A stretch of 64,000 nucleotides of DNA, from the NCBI GenBank assembly GCA_026417135.1, contig JAOADV010000003.1, forward strand, positions 152,288 to 216,287, given 5' to 3'. This document shows, one piece after another, positions 61,609 to 64,000 of the stretch. Each line of letters opens with the position of its first letter. The stretch's first letter is position 1. Below the pieces are notes generated by a model. It was not told the origin of the DNA. It saw nothing but the letters and a program-made list of their open reading frames with translations, and ran no database searches. The stretch comes from Ignavibacteria bacterium (lineage in GTDB: Bacteria; Bacteroidota; Ignavibacteria; Kapaibacteriales; UBA2268). The translations under genes were made by a program, and so were the position numbers.

Positions 61609-64000
61609 ATGCCCAATATGATTGTAGGGATACAAAAAAGCGAATATAACAAAATTCAACACACACCTTGTTCAAATACAAACAACGAAGATATTATTGA
61701 ACATATTAATTCTATAAATTCTACCGAGTTCATTGATTTACTCCTGAATGTTATTAAAAATCAAAAACAGAGATACCAGGAGGCTGAGGTCAAAGCTCAA
61801 AAGGTTACGAAATGCCCAATTTTCGAAATTTCATTTATCCGTGATACTGACTTCTTTCAAGTGCATACTCAAAACTTAAACATAATTGGTGAACATATAC
61901 ATAATTTCGAAGAGGGTTCTTCTTTAAATCAAAGTCTTATCTTACCAAAGGCTTCTTATGATAAAACAACACAAATTTCCCAAAAAGAAAATAGCAATAC
62001 GGGAATAGTCGAGATAAAAGAAAGTTTTACAAACCAAACCAAAGAACTTAAAACAAATCCCAAAAAAAATTATCCTTACGATGAGGTAATTGAAAACACT
62101 ATTACTAATTCCACAGACATTACAAAAATAATCTTCCCTCAAAAAGAACAAAATAATAGATTCAAACAAACAAATTCAGAACCAAATATAACAAATGCTT
62201 ATGATGAAATTAGACCGCCAAAGCCAAAAGATAGATATTTCTTAGGTTTCAAAAAAACGCAACAAATTCCATCTTATTCAAGCAAATTTCTAACGAGTTT
62301 AGTTAATAACACTATTAATAAGGAAGATTTAAATACACTTTCTAACAAACCAAACAATTCCTACAATATTAAGACCTTAGAAACAAATGAAATGCGGGGT
62401 ATTTTAACATATGAAATTAACAACTCAAACAGAGATACAAACTCGAAAATTTCTCAAGAAACTTATAGCTCTGGCACGGAGAACCATTTGATATTAACTA
62501 ATTTCCGTCGAGAAACAACTTTGAATAACGCTAATCAAATTCCATTAAAAACCCACGAAACAAATTACATAGAAAACGTTCAAAAAGTTGGAAAACAATT
62601 AATTGCTAGTAATGTCCAAAAATTTATTCCTATTTCCGAAGAAGAAACTTACACTATACCTAACTCCAAAGCCAAATCAAGCATTAATACAATTACCAAG
62701 AATAGTGAAATCCGAAACCTTAATCTTGAAATTTTATCAAAAAATAATCCAATTACAAATGAAGAAATAAAAAATTTGAATAAACAACAAGCAGAATTTC
62801 AAACCATAATTGCTGAACAAGCCGAACAGAAGAGTAAATCGAAAAAATTAAATGCAGATTTAAACAAATCGAGCACCCCTTACAATCTTGTAAAAGCCTC
62901 GTACTCTTTGGATAATTTCTCAATTCAGAAAAATCTCCAATCCTCCTCCAATTTGAACCTTAACTCAAAAATTGCCGAATTATCCAATCAATGCACAAAA
63001 ATTAATTTAAACGAATTTATTCAAAACGTAATAGATGAACGAAAAAACTATAATGCAAACGCCGAAAAGCTGCTTAATAATAAAAAATATAACAATACTT
63101 TTAATATAAATACTTTAAAAACTACTGATGAATTAAATATTTCAAAACTTTTAGGATTTCTATCATCTTATACTACTAATAAAGAACTCTACCTAAAAGA
63201 CATAAAGCAAATTCAGTTCCAAAGTCAAGAAACAAATTATTTAGAAAATACTCAAAAAGTTGGAAAACAATTAATTGCTAGTAATGTCCAAAAATTTACT
63301 CCTATTTCCGAAGAAGAAACTTACACTATACCTAACTCCAAAGCCAAATCAAGCATTAATACAATTACCAAGAATAGTGAAATCCGAAACCTTAATCTTG
63401 AAATTTTATCAAAAAATAATCCAATTACAAATGAAGAAATAAAAAATTTGAATAAACAACAAGCAGAATTTCAAACCATAATTGCTGAACAAACCGAACA
63501 GAAGAGTAAATCGAAAAAATTAAATGCAGATTTAAACAAATCGAGCACCCCTTACAATCTTGTAAAAGCCTCGTACTCTTTGGATAATTTCTCAATTCAG
63601 AAAAATCTCCAATCCTCCTCCAATTTGAACCTTAACTCAAAAATTGCCGAATTATCCAATCAATGCACAAAAATTAATTTAAACGAATTTATTCAAAACG
63701 TAATAGATGAACGAAAAAACTATAATGCAAATGCCGAAAAGCTGCTTAATAATAAAAAATATAACAATACTTTTAATATAAATACTTTAAAAACTACTGA
63801 TGAATTAAATATTTCAAAACTTTTAGGATTTCTATCATCTTATACTACTAATAAAGAACTCTACCTAAAAGACATAAAGCAAATTCAGTTCCAAAGTCAA
63901 GAAACAAATTATTTAGAAAATACTCAAAAAGTTGGAAAACAATTAATTGCTAGTAATGTCCAAAAATTTATTCCTATTTCCGAAGAAGAAACTTACACTA
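61609..64000 (+). CDS. Large Asn/Lys/Ile-rich ORF with 224-aa tandem repeats, open at right edge; candidate flagellar hook-length control protein FliK
   Basis: No stop from ATG 61609 (alternative ATG 61618) to the window end when translated by hand, about 797 codons; absent from the ORF track because it is unterminated. FliK inferred only from position after fliJ/motE. Confidence 0.6.
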   Translation, partial: MPNMIVGIQKSEYNKIQHTPCSNTNNEDIIEHINSINSTEFIDLLLNVIKNQKQRYQEAEVKAQKVTKCPIFEISFIRDTDFFQVHTQNLNIIGEHIHNFEEGSSLNQSLILPKASYDKTTQISQKENSNTGIVEIKESFTNQTKELKTNPKKNYPYDEVIENTITNSTDITKIIFPQKEQNNRFKQTNSEPNITNAYDEIRPPKPKDRYFLGFKKTQQIPSYSSKFLTSLVNNTINKEDLNTLSNKPNNSYNIKTLETNEMRGILTYEINNSNRDTNSKISQETYSSGTENHLILTNFRRETTLNNANQIPLKTHETNYIENVQKVGKQLIASNVQKFIPISEEETYTIPNSKAKSSINTITKNSEIRNLNLEILSKNNPITNEEIKNLNKQQAEFQTIIAEQAEQKSKSKKLNADLNKSSTPYNLVKASYSLDNFSIQKNLQSSSNLNLNSKIAELSNQCTKINLNEFIQNVIDERKNYNANAEKLLNNKKYNNTFNINTLKTTDELNISKLLGFLSSYTTNKELYLKDIKQIQFQSQETNYLENTQKVGKQLIASNVQKFTPISEEETYTIPNSKAKSSINTITKNSEIRNLNLEILSKNNPITNEEIKNLNKQQAEFQTIIAEQTEQKSKSKKLNADLNKSSTPYNLVKASYSLDNFSIQKNLQSSSNLNLNSKIAELSNQCTKINLNEFIQNVIDERKNYNANAEKLLNNKKYNNTFNINTLKTTDELNISKLLGFLSSYTTNKELYLKDIKQIQFQSQETNYLENTQKVGKQLIASNVQKFIPISEEETYT
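62557..63228 (+). repeat. Tandem repeat copy 1 (672 bp, 224 codons)
   Basis: Starts GAAACAAATTACATAGAAAACGTTCAAAAAGTTGG; 8 mismatches to copy 2 by eye, 5 of them in its first 24 nt. Confidence 0.97.
63229..63900 (+). repeat. Tandem repeat copy 2 (672 bp, 224 codons)
   Basis: Starts GAAACAAATTATTTAGAAAATACTCAAAAAGTTGG; exact 672-bp period, in frame. Confidence 0.97.
63901..64000 (+). repeat. Tandem repeat copy 3, first 100 bp, truncated by window edge
   Basis: Matches copy 2 over 100 bp apart from one base (ATT instead of ACT), which matches copy 1. Confidence 0.97.

What the first reader, a model, noticed from the sequence alone, without database searches (positions are those of the whole stretch)
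61609..64000. Candidate FliK ruler enlarged by domain-sized repeats, possibly setting an unusual hook length
The ORF follows fliJ and a motE-like gene in flgB-flgC-fliE-F-G-H-I-J order, where fliK is commonly found before flgD/flgE. In Salmonella-type systems FliK length determines hook length (of order 0.2 nm per residue for FliK/YscP-type rulers). On that rule each 224-aa repeat would add roughly 40 nm, comparable to a whole typical hook. Gain or loss of repeats by recombination would then change hook length in discrete steps. The FliK assignment is inferred from synteny; the diagnostic C-terminal FliK domain lies outside the window.
Basis: partly seen in the sequence, partly recalled or inferred. 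Interest (0 to 1): 0.85.

Follow-up and report, generated by a model that had tools for sequence, protein, structure and literature searches.

The report
Hook-length ruler gene with tandem repeats
In an uncultured bacterium (Candidatus Kapabacteria), the gene for the protein that measures the flagellar hook has had its spacer region copied in tandem, and relatives have lengthened the same protein with their own unrelated repeats, a natural test of whether a longer ruler builds a longer hook.

Summary
An open reading frame at 61609-64000, after fliJ and a motE-like gene, carries two 224-aa units (214/224 residues identical) and the start of a third, and runs off the contig. The window end is an assembly break inside the repeat: the last 77-mer recurs at 62580, so copy number is unknown.

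FliK identity is now better than synteny, but incomplete. The genome's only Flg_hook (PF02120) protein is on contig C24: 510 aa, no repeats, followed by flgD and flgE. C24 begins with codons 7-31 of the window ORF, letter for letter, then diverges but stays alignable for about 170 aa. The window ORF is therefore a repeat-bearing alternative of that FliK (allele favoured) or a tandem paralogue; its own C-terminus was not found.

Relatives show the idea is sound. In the same order FliK ranges from 442 to 2414 aa; about 20 of 68 sequences have significant internal tandem repeats, unrelated to each other, some in intact genes ending in Flg_hook. Salmonella's law (0.2 nm per residue) predicts about 45 nm per unit; no hook has been measured here. 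Yersinia YscP repeat-number variation is the precedent. New variant of a known kind.

The parts
61609..64000 (+). repeat-bearing FliK-type ORF, open at the contig end (likely start codon 61618)
   Evidence: codons 7-31 identical to the Flg_hook-bearing FliK on contig C24, then collinear divergence
61627..61703 (+). 77-nt stretch identical to the first 77 nt of contig C24 (reverse complement): assembly branch point between the repeat-bearing and repeat-free fliK
61704..62532 (+). non-repeated N-terminal region; about the first 170 residues align with C24 FliK (z about 4.3 against shuffles)
62533..63204 (+). repeat unit 1 (224 aa), first ~50 nt diverged
63205..63876 (+). repeat unit 2 (224 aa), 214/224 residues as unit 1
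63877..64000 (+). start of repeat unit 3 (41 codons), cut by the contig end
60868..61572 (+). motE-like gene (MgtE_N, PF03448), same position in relatives inspected
60422..60871 (+). fliJ (PF02050)
59095..60420 (+). fliI, anchor used to find relatives

Best explanation
The ORF is the export signal and ruler (spacer) part of a FliK, the secreted protein that measures the flagellar hook, in which a 224-residue piece of the spacer has been duplicated in tandem at least twice. The spacer is poorly ordered and helix-prone and would sit unfolded in the hook channel; by the internal-ruler mechanism known from Salmonella FliK and Yersinia YscP, each unit should delay the switch of the export gate until the hook is about 45 nm longer (224 x 0.2 nm). 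In this population a repeat-free fliK of normal length occupies the same locus on contig C24, most likely as another strain's allele. Shown: the repeats, the shared FliK N-terminus, the assembly branch, FliK with repeats plus Flg_hook domain in relatives. Inferred: that this copy ends in a Flg_hook domain, that the two forms are alleles, and that hook length follows.
For: Repeats. FliK parentage: C24 FliK (PF02120 3.4e-13) begins with 77 nt identical to 61627-61703 and stays collinear for ~170 aa (BLAST 3e-17 over 7-182 including the identical part; z about 4.3 without it). Only C33 and C24 hold that stretch; one Flg_hook domain over cut-off, one FlhB and one flagellar-type flgD in the genome. 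Relatives with the stretch assembled have one fliK between motE and flgD. Same-genus precedents: 100-aa duplication in an intact 511-aa FliK (L040/L178); a 134-aa duplication in SKW251, broken at the repeat, whose two contigs overlap by 278 nt with 3 mismatches and end in Flg_hook (L038/L147). Order-wide: lengths 442-2414 aa, about 20 of 68 with repeats, e.g. 53 aa x 6 in a 1106-aa FliK on a 1.4-Mb contig (L173). Ruler law: 363-785 aa FliK gives 42-135 nm hooks, 0.2 nm per residue (PMC6126814). Spacer of low hydropathy with almost no Trp or Cys; unit mean pLDDT 44, helices, no fold.
Against: No Flg_hook domain is seen in the window ORF and its 3' end is missing. A repeat-free FliK with the domain exists in the same bin. 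The repeat unit has no significant similarity to relatives' FliK (0.5 bits to the genus C-domain profile). Outside the 25 identical residues the similarity to C24 is modest. No hook has been measured in any of these organisms.
Confidence: 0.6

Rival explanations
1. Tandem paralogues in one genome: the repeat ORF is an extra FliK-derived gene between motE and the normal fliK of C24, sharing the export-signal end by recent duplication or gene conversion. It could be a second ruler, a secreted competitor, or a decaying copy.
For: Both branches leave the same 77-mer; the assembly cannot say whether that 77-mer occurs once or twice. The window ORF has no Flg_hook domain in the part seen.
Against: Relatives with the stretch assembled have one gene there. 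Under this order, paired reads should have extended C24 back into the unique tail of the first gene, yet C24 starts exactly at the shared 77-mer (argument from assembler behaviour, inference).
Confidence: 0.2
2. Assembly mis-join: the repeat-bearing sequence belongs to another locus or organism and was joined to the motE side through the shared 77-mer; the real fliK is C24's alone.
For: C24 alone carries the flagellar flgD and the flgE that follows it and joins the same 77-mer. Metagenome bins are prone to such joins.
Against: The two branches are homologous and collinear beyond the 77-mer, not unrelated; no other contig of the bin ends in that 77-mer.
Confidence: 0.15
3. The ORF is FliK, but the repeats are neutral drift in a disordered spacer and do not set hook length; the spacer may fold back or be secreted without being stretched.
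For: FliK of up to 2414 aa in relatives would imply hooks of 400 nm or more under the linear law, and Salmonella swims worse with FliK of 520 aa or more (PMC6126814). The spacer evolves so fast that it cannot be aligned between sister species.
Against: In Salmonella tight control is linear from 363 to 785 aa, and Yersinia needle length follows YscP size, which varies by repeat number (PMC3469391).
Confidence: 0.3

Closest known systems
Salmonella FliK, flagellar hook-length ruler
   Same: Same locus logic, exported N-terminus, low-complexity spacer, Flg_hook (PF02120) switch domain in the C24 copy and in relatives
   Different: 405 aa with no such repeats; here the spacer carries 224-aa tandem units, and relatives reach 2414 aa
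Yersinia YscP, injectisome needle ruler
   Same: Strain-variable numbers of internal repeats (14, 25, 46 aa) with needle length linear in protein length (PMC3469391)
   Different: Flagellar, not injectisome; repeat units here are far larger and differ completely from species to species
Engineered Salmonella FliK with YscP insertions (PMC6126814)
   Same: Longer spacer, expected longer hook at 0.2 nm per residue
   Different: Natural rather than engineered; relatives reach beyond the tested 785 aa; hook length unmeasured

Membership tests
FliK (flagellar hook-length control protein) | C-terminal Flg_hook (PF02120) switch domain in the window ORF itself | tested here: inconclusive
   Absent from the 797 aa seen, but the 3' end is lost at the contig break
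FliK (flagellar hook-length control protein) | Flg_hook protein at the same locus in the same genome | tested here: met
   C24, 510 aa, PF02120 3.4e-13, starts with 77 nt identical to the window ORF
FliK (flagellar hook-length control protein) | Position between fliJ/motE and flgD/flgE | tested here: met
   Upstream side in the window, downstream side on C24 through the shared 77-mer; same order in relatives
FliK (flagellar hook-length control protein) | N-terminal homology to FliK | tested here: met
   25 identical codons then ~170 aa collinear with C24; start MIVGIQK resembles MIARMQK, MVAGMQK of the genus
FliK (flagellar hook-length control protein) | Unstructured or helical export-competent spacer | tested here: met
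   Charge-hydropathy on the disordered side, almost no Trp or Cys; unit pLDDT 44, helices only (single-sequence model)
FliK (flagellar hook-length control protein) | Hook length depends on it | not testable with these tools
   Needs microscopy of hooks
YscP-type ruler (injectisome) | Part of an injectisome operon with its own export gate | tested here: not met
   The neighbours are flagellar and the genome has one FlhB-family gate protein

The most novel reading that the evidence does not exclude
Kapabacteria treat the flagellar ruler as a rapidly tunable part: independent tandem duplications in fliK, gained and lost between and perhaps within species, give alleles of very different length in one population and hooks ranging from tens to several hundred nanometres.
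Probability: 0.3. Interest if true: 0.8.

Novelty: new variant of a known kind. Interest (0 to 1): 0.55.

Why it matters
The quantitative ruler law for FliK rests largely on one organism and engineered lengths of 310-785 aa. One bacterial order offers natural FliKs of 442 to 2414 aa, some lengthened by clean tandem units, some by other means. Measuring their hooks would test whether the linear law holds over a fivefold range or breaks, and why a universal joint should need to be longer. It also warns that fliK repeats break short-read assemblies, so copy number and length are under-reported.

Tried and rejected
A protein search of 5.8 billion sequences with the window ORF, and with C24 FliK, found no other member of either beyond each other and one distant FliK, so no second assembly could settle copy number. 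A FliK C-domain remnant in each repeat unit (as in the SKW251 repeat) was tested by profile search and hhalign and is not significant. A genus-conserved HFP motif was tested in the repeat and is not significant. Two sub-threshold PF02120 hits in the genome read as a valyl-tRNA synthetase and an MscS-like channel, not second fliKs. C24's far end has no overlap with other contigs, so C24 is not a redundant haplotype contig. A sequence search of solved structures with C24 FliK found nothing. No paper on natural tandem repeats in FliK was found, within an open-access library only.

Full report
What is there. The ORF at 61609-64000 is real and runs off the window. Its repeat is exact in register: 672 nt, copies at 62533, 63205 and 63877, the last cut after 124 nt. 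Units 1 and 2 share 214 of 224 residues, and the self-comparison score is 1284 against at most 64 in shuffled sequence. The first 50 nt of unit 1 have diverged while the rest is nearly identical, so the array has been homogenised or is young (inference).

The window ends where the contig ends. The window lies at 152288-216287 of contig C33, which is 216287 bases long. The last 77 bases are found again at 62580, while 81 bases are not. An assembler with k=77 that walks round a repeat stops exactly so. The number of units is therefore at least two and a fraction, and otherwise unknown.

Where the FliK domain is. The genome bin (2.24 Mb, 63 contigs, 98% complete) has one Flg_hook domain over the cut-off, on C24, an 8603-base contig. 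Its reverse complement starts with 77 bases identical to 61627-61703 and reads on as a 510-aa FliK, then flgD, a small flagellar protein, flgE, and further on a gene that reads as lumazine synthase. After the shared 77 bases the two proteins differ but stay collinear for about 170 residues: 71/177 identities overall with E 3e-17, and a local score of 95 against a shuffled mean of 57 (s.d. 8.7, maximum 87 of 300) when the identical part is left out. So the window ORF has a FliK front end, and the genome bin holds two continuations of it, one with repeats and one without. The start probably lies at 61618: MIVGIQK resembles MIARMQK, MVAGMQK and MIARMLN of the same genus.

Alleles, paralogues or mis-join. 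Only C33 and C24 contain the 77-mer. C24 starts exactly at it and has no tail of a preceding gene, and C24's other end overlaps nothing. Relatives with the stretch assembled have one fliK between motE and flgD. I read this as two strain alleles in a metagenome, with tandem paralogues and a mis-join as live rivals. This rests on assembler behaviour, not on reads.

Relatives. FliI hits name the group as Candidatus Kapabacteria / Ignavibacteria. In the same genus: 442 aa without repeats (L041, closed genome), 511 aa with a 100-aa duplication and an intact Flg_hook domain (L040), 691 aa without (L039), and SKW251, whose fliK is broken at a 134-aa repeat: the end of one contig and the start of the other overlap by 278 bases with 3 mismatches, and the second carries Flg_hook. 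Across the order 71 of 127 genomes have the domain over the curated cut-off, in frames up to 2414 aa. Among 50 complete genes the median is 584 aa and 17 exceed 1000. About 20 of 68 sequences have repeats well above shuffles, with periods from 12 to 224 aa; the 18 repeat regions compared with each other show no similarity, so they arose separately. In one genus the repeat is 53 aa in one species and 42 aa in another (L173, L177). Several other fliK fragments start at contig ends inside a repeat (L170, L174, L182), and in G018 the N-terminal and C-terminal fliK fragments likewise overlap at contig ends. Comparison FliKs from records titled Firmicutes and other phyla are mostly 447-585 aa and rarely have repeats.

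How it should work. Salmonella FliK of 363-785 aa gives hooks of 42-135 nm, 0.2 nm per residue (PMC6126814); shortening the linker shortens the hook and loosens control (PMC6972891). Yersinia YscP varies between strains by the number of 14-, 25- and 46-aa repeats, and needle length is linear in its size (PMC3469391). On that law one 224-aa unit is worth about 45 nm. A single-sequence model of the unit shows helices at low confidence and no fold, and the model of C24 FliK shows a better-scored helix-strand C-terminal core after a low-confidence spacer. Both suit a ruler but do not prove it. The giant FliKs of other families would predict hooks of several hundred nanometres, which may mean that the law breaks there.

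Verdict. The FliK interpretation is supported for the locus and the N-terminus and open for the C-terminus. The hook-length claim is a sound but unmeasured prediction. The wider pattern, independent tandem growth of the hook ruler in one bacterial order, is the more interesting result.

Noticed in passing
L211 1186-8427; L199; L200/L066; L201; L205; L206 (Kapabacteriales): Giant FliK proteins of about 1900-2414 aa; Flg_hook sits at the far C-terminus where checked (L066, L211), and in the two long cases whose neighbours were read (L066, L057) the gene lies between motE and flgD. Most of their length is not recognisable repeats.
   Followed up: partly
L245 3839-5074 (-); G126:C2:36218; G027:C34:21213: A second, solitary Flg_hook (PF02120) protein of about 410 aa in genomes that also have a giant FliK; in L245 it lies among genes that do not look flagellar. 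Function unknown.
   Followed up: partly
window 54786-55100: A small 104-aa ORF between flgC and fliE in the flagellar operon, unnamed.
   Followed up: no
L007 6001-6414 (-): A protein of about 130 aa (PF12611, 'putative flagellar') sits between flgD and flgE here and in the relatives whose stretch was read.
   Followed up: no
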